From Nocardiopsis alborubida (GTDB lineage: Bacteria > Actinomycetota > Actinomycetes > Streptosporangiales > Streptosporangiaceae), in assembly GCF_012396365.1 (NCBI RefSeq), contig NZ_JAAXPG010000009.1, forward strand, positions 62,001-126,000: a DNA stretch of 64,000 bases. The letters are read 5' to 3'. Below are positions 1 through 13,038 of the stretch, piece by piece. The notes below the pieces were generated by a model. The model saw only the letters and a list, made by a program, of their open reading frames with translations. It did no database searches and was not told the DNA's origin. The translations under genes and the position numbers were made by a program. How positions within the stretch are numbered: position 1 is the stretch's first letter; every line of letters begins with the position of its first letter.

Positions 1-13
1 CAACATCGACTAG
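1..13 (+). CDS. 3' end of a third chaplin-like secreted protein gene (partial)
   Basis: The first 13 bases read as codons for Asn-Ile-Asp followed by TAG. This is the same ending (Thr-Asn-Ile-Asp, stop) as the complete gene at 26-280, and the spacing to the next start is similar (12 versus 10 bases). It is therefore most simply the last codons of an upstream paralogue, so the tandem family extends left beyond the window. Only three codons are visible. Confidence 0.55.
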
Positions 14-25
14 GAGATCCCTGAC

Positions 26-280
26 ATGCTGCGCAAGCTCACCACCGCCACCGCCGTCGCCGGGATCGCCCTGGGCGCCATCCTGGCCGCCACGCCCGCC
101 TCCGCCAGCGGTTCGCACGGCGGCGACCAGCAGTACAACCAGAACCTCCAGCTGGTTCCGGTCCAGCTCTGCAACACCGAGCTGGTGGTCGGCCTCCTGG
201 CCGGCGTCAACGTGCCGGTCCTGTCGCCGCAGACCACGGGCGACTGCGTCAACGGCCCGATCAGCACCAACATCGATTAG
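26..280 (+). CDS. Small secreted chaplin-like protein, copy A
   Basis: An 84-residue protein with a clear Sec signal peptide (Arg/Lys at 3-4, hydrophobic core 8-22, Ala-Ser-Ala cleavage site at 25-27) leaving a mature chain of about 57 residues. The mature part has two cysteines (49 and 74) in a Val-Pro-Val-Gln-x-Cys-Asn ... Gly-Asp-Cys-Val-Asn-Gly arrangement. This recalls the chaplin domain of streptomycetes (Val-Pro-Val ... Cys ... Cys-Val-Asn), but with a longer spacing between the cysteines. Chaplins are amyloid-forming surface proteins that coat aerial hyphae. A weaker alternative is a rodlin-like coat protein. The next gene is a close paralogue 10 bases downstream, and an RBS-like GGAGA lies before the ATG. 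The secreted small-protein call is firm; chaplin function is inferred from the motif only. Confidence 0.75.
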   Translation: MLRKLTTATAVAGIALGAILAATPASASGSHGGDQQYNQNLQLVPVQLCNTELVVGLLAGVNVPVLSPQTTGDCVNGPISTNID

Positions 281-290
281 GGGACGGCCC

Positions 291-617
291 ATGCTGCGCA
301 AGTTCACGGCCGCCACCGCCATCGCCGGTGTCGCCCTGGGCGCGCTGCTCGCCTCCTCGCCCGTGTTCGCCGGCTCGCACGGCGGCGGTCAGCAGTTCAA
401 CCAGAACCTCCAGCTGGTTCCGGTCCAGATCTGCAACGCCGAACTGGCCGTGGGGGTGGCCGGGGTCAACGTGCCCATCCTGTCGCCACAGACGACGGGT
501 GACTGCATCAACGGCCCCGCCACCACCAACGTCCAGCACGACGGCTCCGAGGACCACGACAGTGGTGCCCCGGAGGGTCACACGGGCGAGGGCGAGGACG
601 GGGACAACGGGTACTAG
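291..617 (+). CDS. Small secreted chaplin-like protein, copy B with acidic tail
   Basis: A 108-residue paralogue of the preceding gene. The signal peptide (cleavage after Val-Phe-Ala at 25-27) and the core with Cys48 and Cys72 align almost without gaps. The main differences are a two-residue deletion before the Ala-Gly-Val-Asn-Val segment and an added 26-residue C-terminal tail rich in Asp, Glu, Gly and His. The tail could bind cations or keep the protein soluble at the hyphal surface (inference). It sits 10 bases after copy A, so the two are probably cotranscribed and derive from tandem duplication. A strong hairpin about 60 bases downstream ends the unit. Confidence 0.75.
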   Translation: MLRKFTAATAIAGVALGALLASSPVFAGSHGGGQQFNQNLQLVPVQICNAELAVGVAGVNVPILSPQTTGDCINGPATTNVQHDGSEDHDSGAPEGHTGEGEDGDNGY

Positions 618-676
618 CCACCTTCGAGTGGCGGGATCCCCGATCCCGCAGTGACGGAACGCGAGTGGTTCGTCGA

Positions 677-707
677 GGCCCTCCGGCAGCCTGCCGGAGG
701 GCCTTGT
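677..707 (+). terminator. Terminator of the chaplin-like gene cluster
   Basis: Perfect 12-bp stem GGCCCTCCGGCA / TGCCGGAGGGCC with a 3-base loop, followed by TTGT. It lies 60 bases after the stop of copy B and before the lipoprotein gene. Confidence 0.75.
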
Positions 708-752
708 CGCAGGTAGGACGACTGAGGGAACCGACGTGGGGGGAGATGCCAG

Positions 753-1307
753 ATGAGGCGCACGATCCTGACGGGAGCGGTACTGCTGTTGGCGGCCACC
801 GGCTGCGGCGAGCAGGTGAGCACACCCGACCTGCCCGAGGGCACCAGCGCGCCGGAGGCGGAGCAGAGCCCGCAGGGGGAGACCGCGGACCCGCAGGAGC
901 AGGCCAGTCCGCAGGGGACGCAGCCCGCTCCGGAGGAGGACACCGACCAGAGCAGCGGGACCTTCGTCCTCAACCGGTACGGGAACGAGAACGGGTTCGA
1001 CGACCAGACCCCCACCGAGTACGTCGCCACGGAGTTCACCACCTTCACCGACATGGAGTGGGGCACGTGGGCGGACGAGGTCGCGCGCGGCGAGGGAGGG
1101 GTCAAGGGGACCTGGTGCATGCAGGAGGGCTGCCAGGACGACCCCTACGAGGTCGAGGTCGAGCTGGGCGATCCGGTGGACGTCGACGGCACCACGTACT
1201 TCTCCACGTACACGATCACCGACTACGGCGAGGAGATGTCCGAGGAGATGATCGGGACGCTGGAGGAGGTCGACGGCGGGACCCTGGCGCTGCCGAGCAC
1301 CGGGTGA
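753..1307 (+). CDS. Putative lipoprotein of unknown function
   Basis: A 184-residue protein starting Met-Arg-Arg with a hydrophobic stretch and a lipobox ending Ala-Ala-Thr-Gly-Cys (Cys18), so it should be lipidated and anchored outside the membrane. Residues 20-70 are a low-complexity linker rich in Pro, Glu, Gln and Ser, typical of actinomycete surface lipoproteins. The remaining about 110 residues form an acidic domain with two cysteines (Trp-Cys-Met-Gln-Glu-Gly-Cys) and Tyr/Thr-rich strands. I do not recognise the domain. A GGGGGAGATG ribosome-binding region precedes the ATG. It stands alone between the chaplin-like terminator and the Wadjet-like operon. Confidence 0.75.
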   Translation: MRRTILTGAVLLLAATGCGEQVSTPDLPEGTSAPEAEQSPQGETADPQEQASPQGTQPAPEEDTDQSSGTFVLNRYGNENGFDDQTPTEYVATEFTTFTDMEWGTWADEVARGEGGVKGTWCMQEGCQDDPYEVEVELGDPVDVDGTTYFSTYTITDYGEEMSEEMIGTLEEVDGGTLALPSTG

Positions 1308-1483
1308 TCCGGACCGGGCGCCGAGGGCACGTCGCAGCACCCGGCGGAGGTGAGCTTCGCCTCCCTCGGCAGAATCATGCCAAAGTTCCTCAAAAGAACA
1401 TAACGCCTGATCAAAACGGGTGACGCGGCCCTCTTCCCGGGACCGGACGGCGCCGAAACGGGCGTGGCGCGCCCGCGAGGTCT

Positions 1484-1493
1484 CTAGTCTGCT
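1484..1493 (+). promoter_or_regulatory. Candidate -10 element shared with the promoter at 9290
   Basis: CTAGTCTGCT contains a TANNNT-type -10 hexamer (TAGTCT, 1485-1490) ending 8 bases before the GTG at 1499. Transcription would start at or next to the GTG, so the message would be leaderless or nearly so, and there is no ribosome-binding site. The identical 10-mer occurs at 9290-9299 before the Rad50-like gene. No clear -35 is visible. Confidence 0.45.
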
Positions 1494-1498
1494 GAGTT

Positions 1499-3112
1499 GT
1501 GGGACTCAACCAGTGGACGGACAACCACGCGGACGACGGACGGGGCGCCGACGGGCGGCCGACGCCACGGCACGGCCGCGCCTCTCTGCTGCGCCTGGCC
1601 GCCTGGTTCGAGGAGGCCGACCCGGACCGGGCCGACGCCCTCGCCGCGGCCGCGTACGCCCTCCACCCGGCGCTCCACCTGGAGGGGAGGGTGGACGAGG
1701 GCGTCGCCGCCACCACCAGCTGGTGGCAGGCCGAGGCCGACCGCAGCACCGTCACCGAGCACCCGGGCGCCCGCCCGCCCGAGCCGGTGAGCGACCACCG
1801 CGCCCAGCAGGCGCGCCTGCGCGACGCCGCCGAGTCCTCCGCCCACTGGCGCCGCGCCGGTGCCGCGCAGATCCGCTCCCTGCTCGCCGAGCCCACGGGC
1901 CGCCGCACCCGTCTGGACCTGTCCGGTGCCGGTATGGAGGTCCTGATGGAGCTCCTCACCGCGGCCCTGGGGTCCGGCGACGCCAGCAGACGCCCCACCT
2001 CCGCCGGGGACCTGGAGTTCGCGCTGCGCCTGCACGTCGTCGCCGCGCCGGGCGCCGACGTCACCATCCAGGGGGAGGGCGGAGAGCTGACCCTGGAGGG
2101 GCTGCGCCTGCTGGTGACCCCCTACGAGCAGCACAGCGCCGGTGACCTCGCCCCGCTCCCCGAGGAGCCGGAGGAGGGCGACGCGGAGCTCCCCGAGGAA
2201 CCGGAGCCGGTCGACCCGGGCCGCCCCGCCGACGGTTCTCCGGCGGAGGACGTCCCCGCCGCCGGTGCCGACGCGGACCCGCTCGCCGCGGGGGACGACG
2301 AGGACCTCACCGAGATGCCGGACAAGCCGTCCGAGGACCCACCGGCCCCCATCGACTCCACCACCCCCGCGAGCACGGACGTCCCGGCAGCCTCGTCCAC
2401 GCCGTTCGATCCCCGGACTCCGTTCACCCCGGCCGCCTCCGAGGTCCTGGAGGCCCCATCCTCCTTGGCAGTCCCGCAGCACCCCGTGAACTCCGATGTC
2501 CCGTCCGCACCCGAGAGCATTGAGACCTCGGACGACCCGCTGGGCCCCACCGTCTCCCGGTACTCTGCCGCCTCGGATCGCTCCGTGAACACAGACGCCT
2601 CTGCTGCTGGCTCCGCTGACGCCGAGGCCTCGACGGCTCCCTCCGTCCCGACAGACCCAAAGAAACCCGAGGCCCCGGCACCCCTTTTCGACCCTCGGCT
2701 CTCGACTGCCTCGGACCGCTCCGCGAACACGGGTACCCCAACAGCCCCGTCCGCGCCGTTCGACCCACGGGCCCCGTTCACCCCGGCCGCATCGGAGAAT
2801 CCGGAGAGCCCAATGTCCCCGGCCGCATCCGGCACCGCCGAGACCCCGGCGGCTTCGGCAGAACCCTCCTTCCCCCAGTCCCCGGCAGCCTCACGGCGCC
2901 CCGTGGACCCCGGTGTCCCATCCGTCCCGGAGATCCTCGGGACTCCCGCCGCCCCTTCCTACGCGGACATCCTGGGGATCGCGGCCCCCGCCGCTCCCAC
3001 GCCCCGCCCCGAGGACACCGAACCCACCGGTAACCTCCCTGGACCGGACCCGGAAACCCCCGGTCCGGACGGCCTGTCCGCGAACCCGCCCGAGACGCGA
3101 TCGTGGGAGTGA
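1499..3112 (+). CDS. Truncated DUF2397/TIGR02677 (type II Wadjet JetA-like) protein with long disordered tail
   Basis: A 537-residue product. Residues about 20-205 resemble, from memory of the family, only the C-terminal part of DUF2397/TIGR02677 (Leu-Ala-x-Trp-Phe-x-x-Ala near the start, then a Ser-Trp-Trp segment and the final beta-rich region). DUF2397 is the JetA (kleisin-like) subunit of type II Wadjet. The usual N-terminal 250-300 residues are missing. An in-frame TGA at 1493-1495 excludes an upstream extension, and the lipoprotein gene occupies the next space. Residues about 210-537 are low-complexity Pro/Ser/Ala/Asp/Glu with imperfect repeats (Phe-Asp-Pro-Arg-x-Pro-Phe-Thr-Pro-Ala-Ala-Ser and Ser-Asp-Arg-Ser-x-Asn-Thr). 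Codons around 2500-2760 use T more often than neighbouring genes. The GTG start is probably leaderless. The stop overlaps the next ATG (TGATG), so it is coupled to the JetB-like gene. The family call is moderate; that the protein is shortened is clear. Confidence 0.65.
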   Translation: MGLNQWTDNHADDGRGADGRPTPRHGRASLLRLAAWFEEADPDRADALAAAAYALHPALHLEGRVDEGVAATTSWWQAEADRSTVTEHPGARPPEPVSDHRAQQARLRDAAESSAHWRRAGAAQIRSLLAEPTGRRTRLDLSGAGMEVLMELLTAALGSGDASRRPTSAGDLEFALRLHVVAAPGADVTIQGEGGELTLEGLRLLVTPYEQHSAGDLAPLPEEPEEGDAELPEEPEPVDPGRPADGSPAEDVPAAGADADPLAAGDDEDLTEMPDKPSEDPPAPIDSTTPASTDVPAASSTPFDPRTPFTPAASEVLEAPSSLAVPQHPVNSDVPSAPESIETSDDPLGPTVSRYSAASDRSVNTDASAAGSADAEASTAPSVPTDPKKPEAPAPLFDPRLSTASDRSANTGTPTAPSAPFDPRAPFTPAASENPESPMSPAASGTAETPAASAEPSFPQSPAASRRPVDPGVPSVPEILGTPAAPSYADILGIAAPAAPTPRPEDTEPTGNLPGPDPETPGPDGLSANPPETRSWE

Positions 3113-4506
3113 TGGAGACGGACACCTACAGCGAGGACGCCGCGCTCATCGGCGAACGCCAGGCCGCGGCCCGCGCACTCCTGGCGCACCCCCTGCTCAC
3201 CGAGCGCACCCACCCCGCCGAGTTCGCCCTCGTGCGCTCCCACACCGAGTGGCTCGTGCAGCGGTTCCAGCGCGTGCTCGACTACCGCCTGACCGTCGCC
3301 GAGGACCACGCCCGCCTGGTCAAACGCGGCCTCGTCACCGAGGTCGCGCGCCCCCTCACGCGCGGGACCGGCGCCCCCTTCACCCCGCGCACGCACACCT
3401 ACCTGGCGCTGTCCCTGGCCGTCCTGGTCGAGGAGCACGGCCCCACCACCGTCCGCGGCCTGGCCGGACGGGTTCGCTCCGCCGCGCACGAGGCCGGGGT
3501 CGACGCCGATCCCGCACGAGGCCTGGCCGAGCGCCGCGCCTTCTGCGCCGCCCTGCTCCACCTGGTCGCGCTCGGCGCCCTCACCGAGGACTTCGGCACC
3601 ATCGCCGACCACCGGGAGGACCCCTCCGCCGACGCGGAGCTGATCCCGCACACGCAGGTCCTGCGCTCGGTCGCCGCCCACCTGCCCCGCGCCTCCGACG
3701 ACCCCGACTCCTTCCTCGCCGCCGCCAGCGACACCGACCCCGACGGCGACCACCAGGGCGAGACCGCCCTGCGCAGGCTCCTCGCCGAGACCGCGGTCGT
3801 CTACCGCGAGGAGCTCCCCGACCGCCAGCGCGACCGCCTCGCCGCGCACCAGTGGCGGGCCGCCGCGGCCCTCGGCAACCTCCTGGGCTGCGACACCGAG
3901 GTCCGCGCCGAGGGCGTCGCCCTCGTGATGCCCGACGAGGCGGGGACCCGCCACGCCTTCCCCTCCGACGACCCCGTCGGACAGGTCGCCCTGGCCCTGG
4001 TCCGCCACCTCTCCGGCCGCCTGCACCCCGGTCGCCCCGCCACCTCCTCGCCCGTTCCGGAGGAGGAGCTGGAGGCCGCGCTGGAGGTCCTCTGCGGCGC
4101 CGACGCACCCGCGCGGGCCGAGTGGGCCCGCACCGCGGGACCCGAGGTCCCCGACCCCGTCCGGCTCCGCGAGCGGGTCCTGGTCCTGCTGGCCGACCTC
4201 GGACTGCTGCGGGGCGCCCCCGGGCGGTGGCGGCTCACCGCCGCGGCCGCCCGCTACGGAGCCGAAACGGACGTCCGCGTCCCCCCGATCCAGGACAATG
4301 ACGAAGACAGCCGGACACACCCCGACCCGGTGCGTGCCCCCGGCGACGACGAGGGTGAACCCGACGCTCCCGCCGACCCCCGCGGCGACCTGAGCCGGGT
4401 GGCGTCCGTGCTGCAAGCGGTGGCGAACGAGAAGGTGAGCGCGACCAGTGGTGACTCAGGAGACCAGCCAGGCCCCGGAAGCGGCGGCGGCGACGGGTCC
4501 GGCTGA
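3112..4506 (+). CDS. DUF2398/TIGR02678 family protein (type II Wadjet JetB-like)
   Basis: About 464 residues. The opening (Glu-Arg-Gln-Ala-Ala-Ala-Arg-Ala-Leu-Leu-Ala-His-Pro-Leu-Leu), the His-Thr-Glu-Trp-Leu segment and the Val-Arg-Ala-Glu-Gly-Val-Ala segment match the DUF2398/TIGR02678 pattern. In type II Wadjet, DUF2398 is JetB, the partner that binds the SMC-like JetC ATPase and JetA kleisin (KITE-type role, inferred). The last about 70 residues are a charged, Gly/Pro-rich tail. The ATG at 3112 overlaps the preceding stop; GTG at 3103 or 3109 is possible. The 3' end overlaps the next gene by 59 bases, so the three genes form one operon. Confidence 0.75.
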   Translation: METDTYSEDAALIGERQAAARALLAHPLLTERTHPAEFALVRSHTEWLVQRFQRVLDYRLTVAEDHARLVKRGLVTEVARPLTRGTGAPFTPRTHTYLALSLAVLVEEHGPTTVRGLAGRVRSAAHEAGVDADPARGLAERRAFCAALLHLVALGALTEDFGTIADHREDPSADAELIPHTQVLRSVAAHLPRASDDPDSFLAAASDTDPDGDHQGETALRRLLAETAVVYREELPDRQRDRLAAHQWRAAAALGNLLGCDTEVRAEGVALVMPDEAGTRHAFPSDDPVGQVALALVRHLSGRLHPGRPATSSPVPEEELEAALEVLCGADAPARAEWARTAGPEVPDPVRLRERVLVLLADLGLLRGAPGRWRLTAAAARYGAETDVRVPPIQDNDEDSRTHPDPVRAPGDDEGEPDAPADPRGDLSRVASVLQAVANEKVSATSGDSGDQPGPGSGGGDGSG

Positions 4507-7500
4507 TTCCGCCGGTACCGGCGCCTCCGACGGCGTCCCCCGCTACCGGCTCGAACGCGCGGGCATCCGCAACGTCTGGCAGTACGACGACCACGTCCTG
4601 GACTTCGCCGAGGGGCGGCTGCTGCTGCGCGGCCGCAACGGCGCGGGCAAGTCCAAGGCGCTGGAGATGCTGCTCCCGTTCCTGCTCGACGGCGATGTGC
4701 GCCGCCTGGACACCACGGGCACCAACCGCACCAGCCTGCGCTGGCTCATGGCCGAGGACACGCGGCCGGGCCGCGTCCACGGGGCCGAGGAGGGCGGCCC
4801 CGACCTGCTCGGCGGCCCCGACGCGGAGGACGAACCCGCGGACGGCCAGCACGGCGCCGACGCGTCCGGCGACCCCGAGGGGGAGGAGGACTCAGGTCCC
4901 GCCACCCGGCTCGGCTACCTGTGGGTGGAGTTCACCACCGAGCGCGGCGACCGCGGACTCGACGCCGCGGCCCGCCCCGGAGCCGGCCGGGGGGCCTCAG
5001 CGCTGCTCGCCGGGACCGGCGCCAACAGCGCCTCGGCCCTCCTCGCCGCCAGCGCGGCGGCCAGCGCAGCCGCCGGGTCCGACGCGGCGGAGCCGGAGCC
5101 GGAGCCCCGCGACCCCGACGCCCCGCCCAGCCACCTGACCCTGGGCGCGGCCGTCATGGCGGTCGGCGACTCCGACCCGCGCTGCGTGTTCTTCGTCACC
5201 GACCGCAGGGTCGGCCACGACCTCGAACTCGTCACCGACGGCCGTCCCAAGCCCGTCGACCGCCTCCGCTCGGAGATCGGCGCCGACAACTGCTTCACCA
5301 GCCCCGTCCCCTACCGGGCCCGGGTGATGCACGACCTGTTCGGCATCGACGACTCCGTCCGCTACCGCAACCTCGTCCACCTGCTCTACCGGCTGCGCCG
5401 CCCCACCATCGGCGACCGCCTGGAGGCCGGGGAACTCGTCGGCGTCCTGTCCGAGGCGCTGCCGCCCATGGACGAGACCATCCTGGACGAGGTCGCCCGC
5501 AACATCGCCGACCTGGAGCGGGCCCGCTCCGACAAGGACGCCCTCACCGAGGCCGGGGCGGGGGTCACCGCGTTCCTGGAGGACTACCGGGGCTACCTTG
5601 TCCACACCCTGCGCGCCCGGGCCGCCGAGGTGCGCGAGCAGATCGACGCCGCCGCGGACCGGACTGAGGAGACCGCGCGGCTGCGCGACGAGCTCGACAG
5701 CCTCATCACGGCGGAGAGCCAGATCTCCGAGGAACGCGACCAGGCCCGCCGCACCCGCGACACCGCCCGGTCCGACGACGCGACCCTCGCCGCGGCCCAG
5801 GGCGGCGCCGACACGGCCACGGACGGCGAACGCCGCGCCTACGACGCCGCCGTGGGCGCCTACATCCGCGCGGCCGAGGCCGCCTGGGTCGCCGCCGAAC
5901 ACGCCGAACGGGTCGAACGCCACACCGTCGAGCGGATCGGCGAGGACACCGCCACGATCGAGCGCGCGCTCGACGTCCTGCGCCAGACCCACGCCGAGGC
6001 CGCGCGCGCCGCCTCCGCCGCGGGGATCGACCCCGGCGTCCTCGGTACCGTCCCCGACCCGGTCGCCACCGTCCACGCGCCCCGCGAGAGCACCACCCGG
6101 GTCGACCTGCGGGGGCTGGAACAGGCCGTCGAACGCGAACCCGTCGAGGGCGTGGACCTGGACGGCCTGCGCGAGCGCCTGGGCCGCCTCCACGACCGCC
6201 TCACCGGAGCCGCCGACCGCGCCGCCGACCGCGCCGACCTGGCCGCCCGCCTGACCGGGCTCACCGCCGTCGAGGCCGCCGCCGACCGCCGCCTCGTCGC
6301 GCTGACCAGCGAGGCCGAGTCCGCCGACGCCGTACTCGAACGCGCACACCAGCGCGAGCAGGACGCCATCGGACTCGTACGGCGCGAGAGCGCCGCCTAC
6401 GCCGAGGGCGTCCGGGAGTGGTCCGCCCGGCTGCGCGACTCCAGCCACGCGCACGCCCTGGGCGGGGCCATCCACGAGCTGGAGGGCAGCGTCGAACTGC
6501 CCATCGACGACGCGCTGCGCGTCCTGGACCCCGCGGTCCCCGGCAGGGTGGCCCGCCTGGCGCACGCCGCCGTGGACCCCCTCCTGGAGGAGCTGCGCGC
6601 CCGCCGCGACGTGGCCGTCGGGGAGGAGGGCCAGCTCTCCGGCGAACTCGCGGAACTGGCGGACCGGCGCACCAAGAACGCCGAGCACGCGCCCGAACGC
6701 CCCGGATGGGCCACCTACCCGCGCCCCGACGGGGACGGCGTCCCGCTCTACCTGGCCGTCGACTTCGCGGACGGGCTCAGCACGCGCGAGCAGGCGGGAC
6801 TGGAGGCCGCCCTGGAGGCCAGCGGACTGCTGGCCGGCTGGGTCCGCGCCGACGGCGCCCTGCACGACCCGACCACGCGCGACCTCATGGTCTCCCCGGT
6901 ACCGGTCCCCGCGCTGTCGCGCCCCGTCCGGGGCCGGACGCTGCTCGACGTGCTCGTCCCGGCCGCCGGACCCATCACCGGCCGCGGCGTCGCCCCCGAG
7001 ACCCTGCGCGCCCTGCTCTCCTCCATCGCCCTGGACTCCGAGGCGGAACGGGCCCGCGACCCCGAGGACTCCGAGGCCGAACCCCGGCACCGCAAGGACA
7101 GCCCCGGCTCCGTCGCCCTCTCCAGCGCCATGTCCCTCTCCGGCGGCTGGCGCCTGGGCGTGGCCTCCGGCGCCCACTACAAGAGCGAACCCGAGTACAT
7201 CGGCGAGGCCGCGCGCAAACGGGCCCGCGACCGCACCACCGCCAACACCGACAGGCGCATGGCGATCGCCGAGGCCCTGCTCGCCGAGGCGGGCGAGCGC
7301 CGCTGGGCCGTCGAGCACTCCTACGCCGAACTCCTGGAGGTCTCCCGCACCCTGCCCGACCCCGCCCCCCTGGTCCGCGCCTGGGCCGCTCTGGAGGCCG
7401 CCCGGGACGACGTGGCCGCCGCGCGCCGCGCCCACGACGTGGCCCGCGACACGGCCGAGGACTGCCGGGCCGAGCTGCTCGACGTCCGTGAGAGGCTGCG

Positions 7501-9205
7501 CCGCTCCTCCGTGGTGGAGGGCACCGAGGAGGGCGGACCCGCCGCGGGGGAGCAGGACCTGCCCACCGCGCGCGCCGACCTGGACAGCGCCCTGCGGGCC
7601 CTGGACCACCTGCGGGTCCTCATCGCCTCCGCGCTGCGCGACCTGGACGTCCTGGCCTGGGAGCTCGCCGACCACGAGCACCACGTCGCCGCCTGGCGGG
7701 CCGTCCGGGCCGACCGGGCGCTGGCCGAGGACGCCCGCGCCGCGGCGATCGACGACATGATCACCGTCCGCCGCCAGATCGAGCTCGGCGACCGGGCGCG
7801 GGGGGTGGCCGACGAACAGCTCGACGCCGCCCGCGAACAGGTCGGGGCCAGGGCCGAGGAGGCCGCCCAACGGCTGCCCGAACTCGAACGCGACGCCCAG
7901 CGCGCCCGGGACGAGCGGGTCAGCGCCGAGGCGCGCCTGGCCGCGGCCACGCGCGAGCGCGCCGAACTGGTCAGCCGCGCGCTCGCGGCCGGGGACGGGC
8001 TGGTCTCCGCGGTCACCGGAACCGACGGGTCCGGGGCAGAGGTCCCCGACGCCGTGCTGCTGCGTGCCGCCGGACTGGGCGCGTGTGCCGAGGACGGCGC
8101 GCCCCTGGCCGCCTACCTGGCCGCCCGCGCCGAGACCGCGCCCCCCGGGCCCGACGCCCGCCTCGCCCTGCTGGAGGCCTTCGTCGTCCGGATGGAGGAG
8201 GGCCTGGCCGCCCCGGAGGGCGACGGCGCGACGGACGTGCCGCGGGTCGACGACAGCACGGTCCTGGCCAGTCGCGAGGACCTGGACCGGGTGCTCGCCT
8301 CGGCGGGCTGGACGCAGGTACGCACCGAGATGAGCGAACCGCGGGGCGTCAAGCGCCTCACGATCCACGACGAGGACGGCGCGCACGACGTCACCGCCTA
8401 CGCGGAGCGGATCGCCGCCGCGGTCGCCGGTGCCGAGGAGAGCGTCGCGGTCGCGGAGGAGGAGGCCTTCGAGCGGCACCTGCTCGGAGAGCTGGCCGGC
8501 CACCTGGCGCGCCAGGTCGAGGAGGCCAGGGCCCTCATCGCGACCATGAACGACGTCCTCAAGGACGTCACCACCTCGGCCGGGCTGGGCGTGCGCCTGG
8601 ACTGGCGGTTGGCACCCGACGCGGGCGCGGACATCGAGGCGGTCGTGCCGCTCCTGGCCACCCCGGCCCGGGAGCGGACCCGCGTGCAGACGACCCGGCT
8701 GCGCGACGCGCTCCGGCGCTGCATCGAGGCCATCCGCCGCCTGGACCCCACCGCCACGGGGGGCGCGCAGCTGCGTGCGGCCCTGGACTACCGGTCCTGG
8801 TTCACCTTCACCGTGTACGTCACCGACGGCGCGGGCGACGAGCGGCGCCTGGGGCACCGCACGGCGCTCAGCCAGGGAGAGCAGCGCGTGGTGGCCTACC
8901 TGGTGCTGTTCGCGGCCGCCGCCGCGCACTTCGACGCCCTGGCGGCCAGGGCGCCGTGGGCGCCGAGGCTGATCCTGCTCGACGACGCCTTCGCCAAGGT
9001 CGACGAGCCCACGCACGGGCGCCTGCTGGGCCTGCTGGTCGAACTGGACCTGGACTTCGTCCTGACCTCGGAGCGGGTGTGGGGCTGCTTCGCCAGCGTC
9101 CCCAGCCTGAACATCTACGAGTGCCTGCGGGACCCGAACGTGCCCGGGATCGCCACCCTGCACTTCACGTGGGACGGGAGCAGGAGACGCCTGGTGGGGG
9201 TGTGA
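4448..9205 (+). CDS. Large SbcC/SMC-like ATPase, TIGR02680 family (type II Wadjet JetC-like)
   Basis: A 1585-residue ATPase. Walker A is Gly-Arg-Asn-Gly-Ala-Gly-Lys-Ser at 62-69. The signature is Ser-Gln-Gly-Glu-Gln at 1475-1479. Walker B is Leu-Ile-Leu-Leu-Asp-Asp (Asp1512-Asp1513), followed by a Leu-Thr-Ser-Glu-Arg-Val-Trp-Gly-Cys-Phe segment that is a hallmark of TIGR02680. Between the heads lie long Ala/Arg/Glu-rich coiled-coil stretches (roughly 370-680 and 880-1230) around a globular hinge-like region. Two acidic or Ala-rich inserts (about 115-145 and 165-215) interrupt the N-terminal head. The second Walker B position is Asp where many SMC/ABC proteins have the catalytic Glu. In Wadjet, JetC is the loop-extruding motor that senses small circular DNA. 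GTG at 4448 (or 4451) follows AAGGTGAG; the conserved part starts near residue 31. No JetD gene follows. Confidence 0.88.
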   Translation: MVTQETSQAPEAAAATGPADSAGTGASDGVPRYRLERAGIRNVWQYDDHVLDFAEGRLLLRGRNGAGKSKALEMLLPFLLDGDVRRLDTTGTNRTSLRWLMAEDTRPGRVHGAEEGGPDLLGGPDAEDEPADGQHGADASGDPEGEEDSGPATRLGYLWVEFTTERGDRGLDAAARPGAGRGASALLAGTGANSASALLAASAAASAAAGSDAAEPEPEPRDPDAPPSHLTLGAAVMAVGDSDPRCVFFVTDRRVGHDLELVTDGRPKPVDRLRSEIGADNCFTSPVPYRARVMHDLFGIDDSVRYRNLVHLLYRLRRPTIGDRLEAGELVGVLSEALPPMDETILDEVARNIADLERARSDKDALTEAGAGVTAFLEDYRGYLVHTLRARAAEVREQIDAAADRTEETARLRDELDSLITAESQISEERDQARRTRDTARSDDATLAAAQGGADTATDGERRAYDAAVGAYIRAAEAAWVAAEHAERVERHTVERIGEDTATIERALDVLRQTHAEAARAASAAGIDPGVLGTVPDPVATVHAPRESTTRVDLRGLEQAVEREPVEGVDLDGLRERLGRLHDRLTGAADRAADRADLAARLTGLTAVEAAADRRLVALTSEAESADAVLERAHQREQDAIGLVRRESAAYAEGVREWSARLRDSSHAHALGGAIHELEGSVELPIDDALRVLDPAVPGRVARLAHAAVDPLLEELRARRDVAVGEEGQLSGELAELADRRTKNAEHAPERPGWATYPRPDGDGVPLYLAVDFADGLSTREQAGLEAALEASGLLAGWVRADGALHDPTTRDLMVSPVPVPALSRPVRGRTLLDVLVPAAGPITGRGVAPETLRALLSSIALDSEAERARDPEDSEAEPRHRKDSPGSVALSSAMSLSGGWRLGVASGAHYKSEPEYIGEAARKRARDRTTANTDRRMAIAEALLAEAGERRWAVEHSYAELLEVSRTLPDPAPLVRAWAALEAARDDVAAARRAHDVARDTAEDCRAELLDVRERLRRSSVVEGTEEGGPAAGEQDLPTARADLDSALRALDHLRVLIASALRDLDVLAWELADHEHHVAAWRAVRADRALAEDARAAAIDDMITVRRQIELGDRARGVADEQLDAAREQVGARAEEAAQRLPELERDAQRARDERVSAEARLAAATRERAELVSRALAAGDGLVSAVTGTDGSGAEVPDAVLLRAAGLGACAEDGAPLAAYLAARAETAPPGPDARLALLEAFVVRMEEGLAAPEGDGATDVPRVDDSTVLASREDLDRVLASAGWTQVRTEMSEPRGVKRLTIHDEDGAHDVTAYAERIAAAVAGAEESVAVAEEEAFERHLLGELAGHLARQVEEARALIATMNDVLKDVTTSAGLGVRLDWRLAPDAGADIEAVVPLLATPARERTRVQTTRLRDALRRCIEAIRRLDPTATGGAQLRAALDYRSWFTFTVYVTDGAGDERRLGHRTALSQGEQRVVAYLVLFAAAAAHFDALAARAPWAPRLILLDDAFAKVDEPTHGRLLGLLVELDLDFVLTSERVWGCFASVPSLNIYECLRDPNVPGIATLHFTWDGSRRRLVGV

Positions 9206-9220
9206 GGGGGGCCGCGTCGG

Positions 9221-9245
9221 GGGAGGAGGCCAGTCGGCTCCTCCC
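9221..9245 (+). terminator. Hairpin after the JetC-like gene
   Basis: GGGAGGAG / CTCCTCCC stem of 8 bp with a 9-base loop, 15 bases after the JetC-like stop. There is no T-run. It separates the Wadjet-like operon from the next ATPase gene, which has its own promoter-like element. Confidence 0.5.
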
Positions 9246-9289
9246 GCGACGGAGACCGGCGTTCGGCGAGTGCTTCCTCCCGTCCTGTC

Positions 9290-9299
9290 CTAGTCTGCT
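9290..9299 (+). promoter_or_regulatory. Candidate -10 element for the Rad50-like gene
   Basis: CTAGTCTGCT, identical to 1484-1493. The TAGTCT hexamer is at 9291-9296, so transcription would begin about 9301-9303, at or near the GTG of a possible 11-codon leader ORF. No convincing -35 is visible. Confidence 0.45.
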
Positions 9300-9300
9300 T

Positions 9301-9336
9301 GTGCGGAGACGACACGTGAGCGGGGTGACGAAGTGA
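9301..9336 (+). CDS. Possible 11-codon leader ORF coupled to the Rad50-like gene
   Basis: GTG at 9301 opens an 11-codon frame (Met-Arg-Arg-Arg-His-Val-Ser-Gly-Val-Thr-Lys) whose TGA overlaps the GTG of the following gene as GTGA (9333-9336). It begins at the predicted transcription start, so it could be translated leaderless and feed ribosomes into the ATPase gene by termination-reinitiation. The evidence is positional only; the frame may be fortuitous. Confidence 0.3.
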   Translation: MRRRHVSGVTK

Positions 9337-11363
9337 CTCGGGTACCCGAGACGTTCGAGGGTGGGACGGCGCTCCTGGACGCTCTGGCGCGCTCCGGGCT
9401 GCCCCGGGAGGTCAGCTCCTGGGTCAGCGCGGCCCTGTGGGGCGAGGACGCCCTGGAGGCCCGCCTGAGGGGTGAGCGCGTCCCCGAGCCGGAACCCGCG
9501 GCCGAGCCGCCCGCGGGAAGGGTCCGGCGGACCTACCTCACGGGGATCAGGGTCCAGGGCTTCCGGGGCATCGGACGCCCCGCCGAGCTCACCTTCGACG
9601 CCGGTCCCGGGCTCACCGTGATCGTCGGGCGCAACGGTTCGGGCAAGTCCAGCTTCGCCGAGGCGGCCGAGGCCGCCCTCACCGGCCGCAACCCCCGGTG
9701 GGACGCCATGCCCACGGGCTGGCGCGACGGCTGGCGCAACCTCCACTACGACGAGCGCACCGAGGCGACCGTGGACGTCCGCGTCGCCGGGGACGAGGGC
9801 TCCACCCGCATCAGCCGCAGGTGGACGGGCGAGAGCGTCCGCTCCGCACGCGGCGAGGTCGTCCACCCGGACGGCGAGGTCTCCCCCCTGAGGACCATGG
9901 ACTGGGGCGACAACCTCGTGCGCTACCGCCCGTTCCTGTCCTACGACGAGCTCGGCCGCACGGTCACCGGGCGCTCGGCCGAGCTGTACGACACGCTCAC
10001 GGGCCTGCTCGGGCTCAGCGGCCTGGCGGAGGCCGAGCGCCGCCTGGCCAAGGTGTGCGACGGGCTCGCCAAGCGCCGCGACCGGCCCTCGCGGGAGCTG
10101 CGGTACCTGCTCGACGCGCTCCGGGCCTCCGACGACCCCAGGGCCGTCCAGGCCGTCCAGCTCCTCACCGCCTCCTACTTCGACATGGACGCCCTGCGCA
10201 GGCTCGCGTCCGACACCGGGCCCAGCGATCCCGAGCTGCACACGGTCCTGCGCCGCCTGCGGCGGCTGGCCGTGCCCGAGCGGGCGCTGATGTCCGACGT
10301 GGTCAACGAGCTCCGGGGCGCGTCCATGGAGCTGGCCATGGCGGCGGGCAGCAAGGGCGACCGCGCGCACGGGGTGGTCAGGCTCCTGGAACAGGCCCTC
10401 GAACACCACCAGCGCCACCCCTCGGAGACCGAGTGCCCCACGTGCACCGCGCCGCTGGGCGCCGACTGGGTGCGCCGGGCCAACGCCCAGCTGCGCGCCC
10501 TCAAACCGCAGGCGGCCGTCGTCTCGGCCGCCTACGAGCGCGCCGACGCGGCCAGGGACCAGGCCCGCTTCCTGATGTCGCCGGCACCGGGCTGGCTGCC
10601 GCCTGAGAGCGAGCTGGGCCAGGTGTGGTCGCTGTGGGAGTCCGGCGCGGACATCGACGACCTGGCCGAGCTGGCCGAGCACGTCGAGGCGGTCGGCCGC
10701 AGGCTGCGCGCGGCCGCGGTGAGCGCCCGCCGGGACGCGAGCGAGCGGCTGGAGGACCCGACCGGCGGCTGGTCGGAGCTGGCCGAGCAGCTCTCGGGGT
10801 GGCTGGACGACGCCCAGGACGCCCTCACGGCGCGCGACGCCCTCAACGGGGCCGAGGCCGCGCTGACCTGGCTGACGGAGCAGGCGAGGATCCTGCGGGA
10901 GGAGCGGCTGGGCCCGGTCGCCGCACAGGCCGAGCAGGTCTGGTACCGGCTGCGCCAGGAGCGCCACATCGACCTCCAGGGCATGCGGCTGATCGGCCGG
11001 GGCGCCAGGCGCCGGGTCGAGGTGGACGTGTCGGTCGACGGAGTCGGGGACCAGACCAGCGCGCCCGGGCTCCTGAGCCAGGGCGAGTTCCAGGCGCTGG
11101 CGCTGTCCATCTGCCTGCCGCGCACCCTGGTGGAGGGCAACCCCTTCGGCTTCCTGGTCCTGGACGACCCGGTCCAGGCGATGGACACCGAGACCGTGGA
11201 GGGGCTGTCCGCGGTACTGGCGGAGGTGGGCAGGCACCGGCAGTTGATCGTGTTCACCCACGACACCCGCCTGTCCGACGCCCTGCGCAGGCTGGGCCTG
11301 CCCGCGAACATCCGCACGATCAACCGGGACGCCATGTCCAACGTGTGGGTCGAGGCGGTCTGA
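9333..11363 (+). CDS. Rad50/SMC-like ATPase with zinc-hook motif, putative defence or DNA-repair protein
   Basis: A 676-residue AAA/ABC-type ATPase. Walker A is Gly-Arg-Asn-Gly-Ser-Gly-Lys-Ser at 99-106, the signature Ser-Gln-Gly-Glu at 582-585, and Walker B Phe-Leu-Val-Leu-Asp-Asp-Pro with Asp611-Asp612, followed by a His-Asp switch segment (Phe-Thr-His-Asp-Thr-Arg). A Cys-Pro-Thr-Cys at 368-371 in the middle of the helical region looks like a Rad50-type zinc hook that would dimerise two coiled coils. Residues 1-60 are a separate small N-terminal region ending in a Pro/Glu linker. Such proteins act with nucleases on DNA ends or in defence systems such as Lamassu; no partner nuclease is visible here. 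The start is GTG within a GTGA overlap with the leader ORF, and the conserved ATPase begins near residue 66. It neighbours the Wadjet-like operon but is a separate transcription unit. Confidence 0.8.
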   Translation: MTRVPETFEGGTALLDALARSGLPREVSSWVSAALWGEDALEARLRGERVPEPEPAAEPPAGRVRRTYLTGIRVQGFRGIGRPAELTFDAGPGLTVIVGRNGSGKSSFAEAAEAALTGRNPRWDAMPTGWRDGWRNLHYDERTEATVDVRVAGDEGSTRISRRWTGESVRSARGEVVHPDGEVSPLRTMDWGDNLVRYRPFLSYDELGRTVTGRSAELYDTLTGLLGLSGLAEAERRLAKVCDGLAKRRDRPSRELRYLLDALRASDDPRAVQAVQLLTASYFDMDALRRLASDTGPSDPELHTVLRRLRRLAVPERALMSDVVNELRGASMELAMAAGSKGDRAHGVVRLLEQALEHHQRHPSETECPTCTAPLGADWVRRANAQLRALKPQAAVVSAAYERADAARDQARFLMSPAPGWLPPESELGQVWSLWESGADIDDLAELAEHVEAVGRRLRAAAVSARRDASERLEDPTGGWSELAEQLSGWLDDAQDALTARDALNGAEAALTWLTEQARILREERLGPVAAQAEQVWYRLRQERHIDLQGMRLIGRGARRRVEVDVSVDGVGDQTSAPGLLSQGEFQALALSICLPRTLVEGNPFGFLVLDDPVQAMDTETVEGLSAVLAEVGRHRQLIVFTHDTRLSDALRRLGLPANIRTINRDAMSNVWVEAV

Positions 11364-11384
11364 GTCACAGCCGTGGTGCCGGAC

Positions 11385-11402
11385 CCCCTGTGAACAGGGG
11401 TT
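11385..11402 (+). terminator. Hairpin after the Rad50-like gene
   Basis: CCCCTG / CAGGGG stem with a TGAA loop followed by TTT, 20 bases after the stop codon. Confidence 0.5.
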
Positions 11403-11435
11403 TCGGTGTCCGGGCTCGGGCCGGGGGCATTCGAT

Positions 11436-11466
11436 TTGGCAGACCACCCCCGGATCCCTGTATAGT
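11436..11466 (+). promoter_or_regulatory. Promoter of the tRNA-Thr gene
   Basis: TTGGCA (11436-11441), 19-base spacer, TATAGT (11461-11466). The -10 is close to consensus; the spacer is slightly long. The predicted start is about 11473, some 50 bases before tRNA-Thr. Confidence 0.6.
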
Positions 11467-11525
11467 CATGACCAGCGCAAGGGGGCAACGCCCCCGGGGC
11501 GGACGAGAGAAAGCCCCACCAGCGC

Positions 11526-11601
11526 GCCCCTTTAGCTCAGTCGGCAGAGCGTCTCCATGGTAAGGAGAAGGTCTACGGTTCGATTCCGTAAAGGGGCTCC
11601 A
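11526..11601 (+). tRNA. tRNA-Thr (GGT)
   Basis: A 76-base cloverleaf. The acceptor stem is GCCCCTT / AAGGGGC, the D arm carries TAGCTCAGTCGGCAGAGC, and the anticodon loop ATGGTAA with stem TCTCC/GGAGA gives anticodon GGT (Thr, ACC codons). The T arm is GGTTCGATTCC and CCA is encoded at 11599-11601. Confidence 0.95.
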
Positions 11602-11701
11602 CCACTTGACGGGGTACGGTCCACTCAGGTGGGTGGCCGGAGGGAGCATCCGCCGGCCTGCACCGGGTCACAGCCCTGCTAGGGTTGTGCCCGTTGATCG
11701 G

Positions 11702-11777
11702 GGCGGGGTAGCTCAGTCGGTAGAGCAAGCGGCTCATAATCGCTGTGTCGTCGGTTCAAGTCCGGCCCCCGCTACCA
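11702..11777 (+). tRNA. tRNA-Met (CAT), elongator type
   Basis: A 76-base cloverleaf with acceptor GGCGGGG / CCCCGCT (G-U at the first pair), D arm TAGCTCAGTCGGTAGAGC, anticodon loop CTCATAA (anticodon CAT) and encoded CCA at 11775-11777. The first pair is G-U rather than the initiator's C-A mismatch and the anticodon stem lacks three G-C pairs, so this is elongator Met. A TAGGGT -10-like element lies at 11680-11685. Confidence 0.93.
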
Positions 11778-11784
11778 ACCCGCT

Positions 11785-11811
11785 GACCCCTGAGCCCACA
11801 TCTCAGGGGTC
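11785..11811 (+). terminator. Hairpin between tRNA-Met and rpmG
   Basis: GACCCCTGAG / CTCAGGGGTC, a perfect 10-bp stem with a 7-base loop, extendable by flanking CCCGC / GCGGG. It lies 8 bases after the tRNA and 46 before rpmG; it could terminate the tRNA transcript or form part of the rpmG leader. Confidence 0.6.
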
Positions 11812-11856
11812 GTCGCGGGCGTTTACCACTGTTTCCAGCGAGAAAGGCACTCCGAA

Positions 11857-12021
11857 GTGGCTGCCACCGACGTGAGGCCGAAGATCACCCTGGCCTGCCA
11901 GGAGTGCAATCACCGGAACTACATCACCCGCAAGAACCGTCGGAACACCCCCGACCGTCTCGCGATCAAGAAGTTCTGCCCGAACTGCCGCAAGCACAAC
12001 GAGCACCGCGAGACCCGTTAG
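11857..12021 (+). CDS. rpmG: 50S ribosomal protein L33
   Basis: A 54-residue protein on the large subunit. The ending is typical of L33 (Phe-Cys-Pro-Asn-Cys-Arg-Lys-His ... Glu-Thr-Arg). Both zinc pairs are present (Cys-Gln-Glu-Cys and Cys-Pro-Asn-Cys), so this is the C+ zinc form; actinomycetes often carry a zinc-free paralogue elsewhere, induced on zinc starvation. The GTG start follows GAGAAAGG. Placement after tRNA-Thr and tRNA-Met and before the dehydratase pair and murB matches streptomycete order. Confidence 0.95.
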
Positions 12022-12095
12022 GTCCCGCGCGAGCGCCCCTGTCGAGCGCGATCGTCTCCGCCGCGACGTCGCAGAGGCAGTTCTCGAAGGCTTCC

Positions 12096-12124
12096 AGCCC
12101 GGTGAGCGATCCGCTCACCGGGCT
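12096..12124 (+). terminator. Terminator of rpmG
   Basis: AGCCCGGTGAGCG / CGCTCACCGGGCT, a perfect 13-bp stem with loop ATC followed by GTTCG. No clear promoter is visible in the 37 bases before the next gene, so some read-through is likely. Confidence 0.75.
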
Positions 12125-12161
12125 GTTCGCGTGTCCGGGCCCCTTCACGACAGGAGAGAGC

Positions 12162-12611
12162 GTGGCGATCAACCCTGACTACCTCGGCCGGGAGTACCCC
12201 GCGCCGGAGGCCTACGAGGTCACCCGGGGCAAGATCCGGGAGTTCGCCGAGGCGGTCAACGACCCCAACCCGGTCTACACCGACCAGGCCTCGGCCCGGG
12301 CGGCCGGACACCCCGACGTGGTCGCCCCGCCCACCTTCCCGGTCATCCTGGGGATGGCGGGCTCGGGCCAGGCCATCGCCGACCCCGACCTCGGACTGGA
12401 CTTCTCCCGGGTCGTGCACGGCGACCAGAGCTTCCGCTACAGCCGTCCGCTGTACGCCGGGGACGTCCTCAGCAGTGTCACCCGTATCACGGCCATCCGG
12501 GCCCTGGGCGGCAACGAGCTGATCACCCTGGAGACCGTGGCCCACGACGCCGACGGCGAGCACGTGGTCACCGCCACGATGATGCTGGTCGCGCGAGGAG
12601 GAGAGGAATGA
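12162..12611 (+). CDS. MaoC-type (3R)-hydroxyacyl-ACP dehydratase, HadA-like subunit
   Basis: A 149-residue hot-dog fold protein of the MaoC N-terminal/FAS1-like dehydratase family. It has Tyr-Glu-Val-Thr-Arg-Gly-Lys-Ile-Arg-Glu-Phe-Ala near the start, Asn-Asp-Pro-Asn-Pro-Val-Tyr, Ala-Pro-Pro-Thr-Phe and a conserved His-Gly-Asp-Gln region. In mycobacteria HadA pairs with HadB to dehydrate 3-hydroxyacyl-ACP in FAS-II; here HadA would supply substrate binding and lacks the catalytic Asp/His found in the partner. The start is GTG after AGGAGAGAG. The stop overlaps the next ATG (ATGA), so the subunits are translationally coupled. The acyl substrate in this organism is unknown. Confidence 0.85.
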   Translation: MAINPDYLGREYPAPEAYEVTRGKIREFAEAVNDPNPVYTDQASARAAGHPDVVAPPTFPVILGMAGSGQAIADPDLGLDFSRVVHGDQSFRYSRPLYAGDVLSSVTRITAIRALGGNELITLETVAHDADGEHVVTATMMLVARGGEE

Positions 12612-13036
12612 GCAGGCTGCGCCACGCCGACGTCGAGGTCGGCACCGAGCTGCCCGAGCGCACCTTCCCGGTCCGCCGCCTGGACCTGGTCCGCTACGCG
12701 GGGGCCTCGGGCGACTTCAACCCGATCCACTGGAACGAGCGCTTCGCCAAGTCGGTCGGGCTGCCCGACGTCATCGCGCACGGCATGTTCACCATGGCCG
12801 AGGCCGCGCGGGTGCTCACCGACTGGGCGGGCGACCCCGGCTGCGTCGTCGACTACTCGGTGCGCTTCTCCGCGCCCGTGGTGGTCCCCGACGACGACGA
12901 GGGAGCCGAGATCTCCGTCGGCGGCAAGGTCAAGAGCAAGAACGACGACGGCACCGTCACGGTGCTGCTGACCGCGCGGTCGGGCGGCGCCAAGGTTCTG
13001 GTGCAGTCCAAGGCCACCGTGCGCCTGGCGAGGTAG
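12608..13036 (+). CDS. MaoC-type (3R)-hydroxyacyl-ACP dehydratase, HadB-like catalytic subunit
   Basis: A 142-residue MaoC/hot-dog protein. The R-hydratase catalytic motif Asp-Phe-Asn-Pro-Ile-His is present (near residues 37-42), followed by His-Gly-Met-Phe-Thr. It should form the active heterodimer with the preceding gene, dehydrating (3R)-hydroxyacyl thioesters in fatty-acid metabolism. The 4-base ATGA overlap with the HadA-like gene supports obligate pairing. murB starts 2 bases after its stop, so the three genes are probably one operon. This pair next to murB is a conserved actinobacterial arrangement. Confidence 0.85.
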   Translation: MSRLRHADVEVGTELPERTFPVRRLDLVRYAGASGDFNPIHWNERFAKSVGLPDVIAHGMFTMAEAARVLTDWAGDPGCVVDYSVRFSAPVVVPDDDEGAEISVGGKVKSKNDDGTVTVLLTARSGGAKVLVQSKATVRLAR

Positions 13037-13038
13037 AC

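What the first reader, a model, noticed from the sequence alone, without database searches (positions are those of the whole stretch)
1499..11363. Type II Wadjet-like locus without JetD, next to a solitary zinc-hook SMC ATPase
DUF2397-like, DUF2398 and TIGR02680 genes in this order are JetA, JetB and JetC of type II Wadjet, a system that destroys small circular DNA. The fourth gene (DUF2399/DUF3323, the Toprim-fold JetD nuclease) should follow JetC. Instead there is a terminator, a separate promoter and a Rad50-like ATPase without a nuclease motif. Either the system has lost its nuclease and does something else with loop extrusion (segregation, silencing, sensing), or it recruits a nuclease or the neighbouring SMC protein in trans. 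This is the best candidate here for an undescribed variant.
Basis: partly seen in the sequence, partly recalled or inferred. Interest (0 to 1): 0.8.

Follow-up and report, generated by a model that had tools for sequence, protein, structure and literature searches.

The report
Nuclease-free Wadjet complex, inherited vertically
A bacterial DNA-looping machine of a kind known for destroying plasmids has here lost its cutting enzyme and most of one subunit, yet a whole group of soil bacteria keeps it intact near the replication origin, which suggests it has been turned into a chromosome-care tool.

Summary
In detail: jetA(short)-jetB-jetC of type II Wadjet without JetD, followed by a zinc-hook Rad50-like ATPase ("S"). 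It is not a remnant. The set occurs in 40 of 40 genomes of the genus (Nocardiopsis) and in 72 of 298 sampled genomes of the GTDB family; the same 72 carry the S orthologue. Frames are nearly all intact and under purifying selection. No JetD was found in any of 73 loci, 66 of which hold over 6 kb beyond jetC. JetC places the set as one clade nested among JetD-bearing systems; the basal member still has a full-length kleisin, so JetD went first and the N-terminal two-thirds of JetA later. Supply in trans is unlikely: 18 of 40 genus genomes have no JetD match, and 4 of these also no other JetA. In the 17 genomes where it could be measured, the locus lies 0.56-1.06 Mb from dnaA. jetA and S share a promoter-like 10-mer found three times in the 7.16-Mb genome. 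Most likely it is a domesticated, non-cutting SMC motor or clamp on the chromosome, with S in the same regulon. Function is inferred; a sensor with another effector remains possible. A separate type II lineage in the genus has apparently lost JetD more than once.

The parts
1484..1493 (+). CTAGTCTGCT, -10-like element of jetA; begins 15 bases before the GTG, which suggests a leaderless mRNA
   Evidence: Exact in 26 of 38 genus loci that hold the region; the other 12 have a variant (TACTCTGCT or TACCCTGCT) at the same place, by eye. 3 copies in the 7.16-Mb genome, 2 of them in this locus; control pattern 1 copy.
1499..2143 (+). jetA core: C-terminal third of a DUF2397 kleisin (215 aa)
   Evidence: PF09660 300-481; a profile of 25 relatives matches residues 316-488 of JetA 9qe0_E, weakly (E 0.0048); dN/dS 0.07-0.44
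2144..3112 (+). jetA tail: Pro/Ala/Ser-rich, probably disordered, length differs between species
   Evidence: dN/dS 0.42-1.66 in 16 pairs; JetA 255-545 aa in the genus, 219-300 aa in other genera with the short form
3103..4506 (+). jetB: KITE subunit, DUF2398 (alternative start 3112)
   Evidence: PF09661 294 bits, positions 1-362 of 363; 40 of 40 genus genomes; start 3112 chosen by my gene caller
4448..9205 (+). jetC: SMC ATPase, TIGR02680/JetC2, with Walker A, SQGEQ signature and Walker B
   Evidence: matches JetC 9qe0_A at 2.7e-46
9215..9251 (+). G+C-rich hairpin between jetC and S (possible terminator without T-run)
   Evidence: fold (z -0.24 for the 91-nt stretch); not reported by the terminator scan
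9290..9299 (+). CTAGTCTGCT, second copy, upstream of S
9333..11363 (+). S: Rad50/SMC-like ATPase, 676 aa, CPTC zinc hook at 368-371, Walker motifs kept, no nuclease family among its matches
   Evidence: orthologues in the same 72 of 298 genomes as this JetB

Best explanation
The locus encodes a domesticated, non-cutting JetABC (MukBEF/MksBEF-like) SMC complex. Shown by sequence: one ancestral JetD loss, then loss of the kleisin's N-terminal two-thirds, then vertical inheritance as an origin-proximal core locus of Nocardiopsis and its relatives, together with a hook ATPase S under a similar promoter element. Inferred: JetC still binds and hydrolyses ATP and clamps or translocates DNA with JetB and the kleisin's C-terminal domain. 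Without the kleisin N-terminus it can form neither the kleisin-linked dimer of two motors nor the usual neck closure, so it cannot measure and cut small circles. It works as a single motor or clamp on the chromosome (organisation, segregation or repair), beside the normal Smc-ScpAB. S acts in the same pathway, possibly as a tether or sensor of DNA ends or unusual DNA.
For: JetABC in 40 of 40 genus genomes and in 72 of 298 family genomes, with no JetD in 73 loci (66 of them hold more than 6 kb beyond jetC; the same profile found JetD in 16 of 16 control loci). Purifying selection on JetA core, JetB, JetC (20 species pairs) and S (19 pairs). ATPase motifs kept in all 27 clade members of the tree: Walker A (two as GRNGTGKS), Walker B, and SQGEQ (MSQGEQ in G098). 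JetC tree: the clade of 27 has support 1.0 and is nested in JetD-bearing systems; G098 (L116), with full-length JetA, is basal. JetD in 16 of 18 examined loci of the nearest relatives outside the clade. No JetD match in 18 of 40 genus genomes, and in 4 of these no PF09660 match over the cut-off outside this locus. 564-1058 kb from dnaA in 17 of 19 genomes, 2 not measurable. ScpB in 39 of 40 genus genomes, so it is an addition to condensin, not a replacement.
Against: No experiment, expression or Hi-C data. Core status and position fit any conserved function, including a housekeeping form of defence. The predicted structures were too poor to use (pLDDT 37 and 44), so the fold of the short JetA and its contacts are inferred from sequence, and its match to a solved JetA is weak (E 0.0048). 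Synteny with S may be plain inheritance of a conserved block.
Confidence: 0.5

Rival explanations
1. Still a defence or sensing system: JetABC detects foreign DNA and signals to an effector other than JetD, for instance S or an unlinked nuclease.
For: Relatives are anti-plasmid systems (passages of PMC10586767). S weakly resembles defence ATPases (mad3 78 bits, LmuB 62 bits). S paralogues at 36-43% identity occur patchily, and 5 of 7 read stand with a small partner gene, as defence genes may.
Against: Present in every genus genome sampled, origin-proximal among core genes, with purifying selection; defence genes are usually patchy. No nuclease family among the matches of S. No gene that I recognise as an effector among the recurring neighbours (of these only the MaoC pair and MurB were named by family search).
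Confidence: 0.25
2. JetABC and S form one machine: S supplies the second ATPase or dimerising function that the shortened kleisin no longer gives.
For: Exact co-occurrence in 72 of 298 genomes. Shared 10-mer element, 2 of its 3 copies in the genome. S in this clade lacks the C-terminal extension of four of the five aligned paralogues and the small partner gene seen beside five of seven.
Against: In G098 S is inverted while JetA is still full-length, so association came before the shortening. 5.1 kb between jetC and S in G195. Co-occurrence in one clade can be shared ancestry. Outside the genus the element stands before S in only 10 of 29 loci.
Confidence: 0.17
3. JetD acts in trans from other Wadjet loci of the same genome.
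For: The own genome has a complete type II set at C16.
Against: 18 of 40 genus genomes have no PF09664 match anywhere, several of them at 100% completeness in two to four contigs; the locus is there too.
Confidence: 0.03
4. Decayed remnant of a Wadjet operon.
For: JetD and the JetA N-terminus are missing. A real remnant exists at C13, and another type II locus (L124) has a JetC cut to 287 aa. G008 and G028 have broken frames in this locus.
Against: Long open frames nearly everywhere and dN/dS well below 1 for four genes, JetD-less since the common ancestor. The JetB breaks in G004 and G021 are runs of N; G008 and G028 have completeness 84 and 91.
Confidence: 0.02

Closest known systems
Type II Wadjet (JetABCD; DUF2397/DUF2398/TIGR02680/DUF2399)
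   Same: JetB and JetC are members by sequence; operon order A-B-C; the JetC clade is nested inside JetD-bearing type II loci
   Different: No JetD; JetA reduced to the C-terminal third; core, origin-proximal and vertically inherited rather than patchy
MksBEF / MukBEF condensins
   Same: Kleisin-KITE-SMC without nuclease; presumed chromosomal role
   Different: Best matches are type II Jet models, not MukBEF; kleisin lacks the N-terminal dimerising part; present beside ScpB
SbcC/Rad50 and Lamassu LmuB (for S)
   Same: ABC ATPase halves, CPxC zinc hook
   Different: Short (676 aa); below the cut-off of all 25 NCBIfam models shown; no SbcD/Mre11 or LmuA/LmuC recognised beside it

Membership tests
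Type II Wadjet | JetA with complete DUF2397 | tested here: not met
   PF09660 300-481 of 483 only; same part in 40 of 40 genus genomes. In the other genera tested by tblastn, where only the C-terminal part matches, except G098, which has DUF2397 2-480
Type II Wadjet | JetB, DUF2398 | tested here: met
   PF09661 294 bits over a cut-off of 26.9; but below the cut-off of TIGR02678, 79.9 against 124.65
Type II Wadjet | JetC, TIGR02680, with ATPase motifs | tested here: met
   712 bits over a cut-off of 463; motifs
Type II Wadjet | JetD Toprim nuclease in the operon | tested here: not met
   none in 73 loci; 66 hold more than 6 kb beyond jetC, 3 hold 332-499 bases, 4 do not hold its end; 16 of 16 control loci positive
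Type II Wadjet | Cuts small circular DNA, limits plasmids | not testable with these tools
   needs the bench
MksBEF/MukBEF-like condensin (as a way of working) | Kleisin + KITE + SMC, no nuclease | tested here: met
   (kleisin only in part)
MksBEF/MukBEF-like condensin (as a way of working) | Kleisin N-terminus that dimerises two motors | tested here: not met
   N-terminal part absent; its role from passages of PMC10586767 and PMC10512200
MksBEF/MukBEF-like condensin (as a way of working) | Role in chromosome structure | not testable with these tools
   needs Hi-C or microscopy
SbcCD/Rad50-Mre11 (for S) | Zinc hook CxxC | tested here: met
   both cysteines invariant in 23 of 23 aligned S and paralogues; zinc binding not tested
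SbcCD/Rad50-Mre11 (for S) | Partner nuclease SbcD/Mre11 beside it | tested here: not met
   neighbours are jetC, two tRNAs, MaoC pair, MurB; elsewhere in the genome not tested
Lamassu (for S) | LmuA/LmuC beside LmuB | tested here: inconclusive
   no such gene among the neighbours named by family search, but not every neighbour was searched; S reaches 62 bits with one LmuB model

The most novel reading that the evidence does not exclude
A two-ATPase chromosome machine: a nuclease-free JetABC with a kleisin reduced to its cap-side domain works together with a dedicated zinc-hook ATPase under a shared promoter element. It would be an SMC complex without a classical kleisin ring, born from a plasmid-destroying system.
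Probability: 0.17. Interest if true: 0.85.

Novelty: new variant of a known kind. Interest (0 to 1): 0.62.

Why it matters
Nuclease-free relatives of Wadjet pose the question whether such systems arise from condensins or the reverse. Here the direction is readable: JetD-bearing relatives around the clade, an intermediate with full kleisin and no JetD (G098), then the shortened form, kept under selection. It also offers a natural test of what an SMC motor can do without the kleisin's N-terminal two-thirds. And it warns that annotation tools may count JetA-B-C in these genomes as anti-plasmid systems.

Tried and rejected
JetD in trans, remnant, or sequencing error: rejected. JetA start too far downstream: rejected, since the element at 1484 sits at a fixed distance from the start across the genus and no N-terminal JetA match lies in the short-JetA loci. 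The antisense ORF 9165-11447 has no family match. Replacement of Smc-ScpAB: rejected, ScpB in 39 of 40 (G021 misses it in a 240-contig assembly). JetB N-termini of JetD-bearing and JetD-less sets show no clear lost motif. Structure prediction from 5 and 6 close relatives gave pLDDT 37 and 44, so no fold search was run. Rfam gave only tRNAs in 1-14000; PHROGs only weak ATPase-type matches, and only for S. JetB has no PDB match, with one sequence (E up to 1) or a profile (E up to 10). PF11796 was not searched; my JetD profile was made from my own JetD gene calls, most of them complete, but the genome-wide search used PF09664 only. The first ATPase patterns missed variants; searches cover those. 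The chance figures printed are not used, since the genomes share ancestry. The stop-to-stop gene caller was my own, not a published one, and dN/dS is Nei-Gojobori by my own script.
Full report
WHAT IS THERE. The window is G000:C76:62001-126000 of a 7.16-Mb genome. Its genus is Nocardiopsis, inferred from named relatives found with JetB (one of the five organisms in that list is labelled Glycomyces fuscus). JetA (1499-3112) matches only positions 300-481 of 483 of DUF2397; JetB (3103-4506) matches DUF2398 over 362 of 363 positions; JetC (4448-9205) scores 712 bits with TIGR02680 and 1064 bits with a PADLOC JetC2 model; the fourth protein, S, is an SMC_N/AAA_23 ATPase. jetA and jetB overlap by 10 bases, jetB and jetC by 59, and S begins 127 bases after jetC.

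THE KLEISIN IS CUT DOWN. A profile of 25 short JetA proteins aligns to residues 316-488 of the 500-residue JetA in PDB 9qe0. The match is weak (E 0.0048, best stretch 0.046; the next chain, unrelated, is at 0.35), but it agrees with the DUF2397 positions. The full-length JetA of the own genome's C16 locus aligns to residues 19-393 of the same chain (E 1.4e-7). JetC also matches 9qe0 (2.7e-46). That 9qe0 is type II is my inference from these matches. So about 300 N-terminal residues are missing. In solved Wadjet and MukBEF complexes the kleisin N-terminus links two motors (passages of PMC10586767 and PMC10512200). The start is real: a -10-like element, CTAGTCTGCT, begins 15 bases before the GTG in the window. 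It is exact in 26 of 38 genus loci that hold the region (14-15 bases before the start); the other 12 have a variant at the same place. The spacing suggests a leaderless mRNA. After the conserved 215 residues comes a tail that varies in length and evolves under weak constraint (dN/dS 0.42-1.66 in 16 pairs; the alignment of such low-complexity sequence is uncertain).

IT IS CONSERVED, NOT A REMNANT. JetB of this type is in 40 of 40 genus genomes, and all 40 have the short JetA. Of 298 genomes drawn from the GTDB family, 70 have JetB at 47% identity or more; G098 and G101 (40-42%) belong to the same JetC clade, which makes 72. I read 73 loci from these 72 genomes (one genome is split over two contigs). 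JetD was sought by tblastn, by a JetD profile on gene calls and by the same profile on six-frame ORFs: no hit. Of the 73 loci, 66 hold more than 6 kb beyond jetC, 3 hold 332-499 bases, and 4 do not hold its end; the six-frame search found JetD in 16 of 16 control loci. In 20 species pairs dN/dS was 0.07-0.44 (JetA core), 0.13-0.43 (JetB), 0.11-0.32 (JetC) and 0.07-0.27 (S, 19 pairs). Apparent JetB breaks in G004 and G021 are runs of N. G008 and G028 show broken frames and have completeness 84 and 91.

WHEN JetD WENT. In a JetC tree of 51 sequences the 27 JetD-less members form one clade (support 1.0), next to the JetD-bearing loci L115 and L152 (support 1.0 for the 29 together). The basal member, G098 (L116), has a full-length JetA (DUF2397 2-480) and no JetD, and its S gene is inverted; G101 (L117) has the short JetA. 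Order: JetD first, kleisin second. Of 18 examined loci of nearest relatives outside the clade, 16 have JetD. The two others are L124, where JetC is cut to 287 aa, and L167, which ends inside JetC. In an order-wide (345 genomes) and a class-wide (394 genomes) search, close JetB matches were again only in this family; five class-level matches at 38-42% all stand beside JetD.

NOT IN TRANS. PF09664 is found in 22 of 40 genus genomes, some only as fragments, and in none of the other 18. In four of the 18 (G002, G012, G025, G028) there is also no PF09660 match over the cut-off outside this locus; G028 has one of 46 positions below it. In the own genome JetD sits in a complete set at C16, with a remnant at C13.

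PLACE. dnaA was sought in 19 genomes with few contigs and found in all; in 17 it shares a contig with the locus, at 564-1058 kb (median 785 kb; circularity assumed for G038, G060 and G195). In G007 and G110 the two lie on different contigs. The neighbours (two small secreted-protein genes, a lipoprotein gene, MaoC pair, MurB) recur in 58-65 of 73 loci. By contrast, over 43% of Lamassu and Wadjet systems of Streptomyces lie in the chromosome arms (passage of PMC10482375). ScpB is in 39 of 40 genus genomes.

S. S orthologues (57% identity or more) are in exactly the same 72 of 298 genomes. In 65 loci S follows jetC on the same strand, 58-1772 bases away in 64 and 5130 in one (the 976 and 1772 belong to the broken G028 and G008); in G098 it is inverted; in 7 loci the contig ends first. 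The CxxC hook, SQGE and DDPVQ motifs are invariant among 23 S proteins and paralogues. The paralogues (36-43%) are patchy; four of the five aligned carry a C-terminal extension of about 100 residues, and a small gene of 114-132 aa follows in five of the seven loci read. S of this clade has neither. The element CTAGTCTGCT stands before both jetA and S. In the 7.16-Mb genome it occurs three times, twice here; the third, at C43:2852, has no called gene start near. The control, the pattern read backwards, occurs once. In 1.12 Mb of genus DNA all 48 copies lie in this locus before jetA or S (46 by gene call; two by position). Most of that DNA is this locus from 40 genomes, so the own-genome count is the cleaner test. 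Before S, 24 of 37 genus loci have the form [CT]TAG[ACGT]CTGC; of the other 13, ten show a variant by eye and three (L075, L077, L078) no clear one. Outside the genus it stands before jetA in 29 of 32 loci but before S in only 10 of 29. I read this as probable co-regulation, not proof of a joint machine.

SECOND JETD-LESS LINEAGE. A distinct full-length JetABC ('locus X') was read in 15 genus genomes: JetD is present in 4 (G000, G010, G015, G031), absent with intact JetABC in 10, and only JetA remains in 1. None of the 10 keeps a JetD trace by tblastn. JetD-bearing and JetD-less members are interleaved in the tree, though the node that joins G000, G007 and G022 has support 0.17, and the own genome (JetD present) and G007 (absent) are 94-97% identical on either side of the gap. 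JetD was therefore apparently lost more than once while JetABC stayed; regain by transfer is not excluded.

MECHANISM. Shown: gene content, loss order, constraint, position, absence of JetD. Inferred: a non-cutting SMC motor or clamp on the chromosome. MksBEF in Pseudomonas aeruginosa chromosome segregation is the precedent (abstract of PMC7485682 in a search listing). That this MksBEF lacks MksG is recalled; a passage of PMC10123090 describes four-gene mks operons in other Pseudomonas strains. What closes the neck without the kleisin N-terminus is open.

LITERATURE. Searches of the held library listed no paper that I recognised as being on JetD-less type II Wadjet or on this locus. The phrases 'lacking JetD', 'without JetD', 'absence of JetD' and 'JetD-less' had no hit. 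One paper holds both 'Nocardiopsis' and 'Wadjet' (PMC11706625) and one holds 'type II Wadjet' (PMC8954581); I saw both only in the listing. Most subscription papers are not held, nor bioRxiv. I saw listings, and passages of PMC10586767, PMC10482375, PMC10123090 and PMC10512200.

Noticed in passing
G000:C16 (L042:7000-15711) and loci L125-L137 without L129, L155, L156: Second type II Wadjet lineage ('locus X') in the genus: JetD present in 4 of 15 loci read, absent with intact JetABC in 10, only JetA left in 1; JetD replaced by unrelated sequence between G000 and G007.
   Followed up: partly
L150, L151, L154, L157, L158 (S paralogues); also L149, L153: S paralogues (36-43%) followed in five of seven loci by an uncharacterised gene of 114-132 aa; no Pfam match above cut-off for the four tested. 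A possible two-gene system.
   Followed up: partly
G000:C13:77316-77978 (L043): Decayed Wadjet remnant: JetA N-terminal 97 positions followed within about 200 bases by the JetD C-terminus.
   Followed up: partly
window 26-617; L094:15766-16883: Row of small secreted-protein genes of one family upstream of jetA (chaplin-like by my reading, no family search), found in 59 of 73 loci; they vary in number.
   Followed up: no
G007:C2 (775354 bases): In G007 this locus lies on a 775-kb contig apart from dnaA.
   Followed up: no
L091, L103, L111: My gene caller gives jetC of 1803-1928 aa here, with a long extra N-terminal stretch; not examined.
   Followed up: no
G060:C1:314221-315462, L143, L144: Further DUF2398 or weak DUF2399 matches that may be other Wadjet-like sets; not classified.
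   Followed up: no
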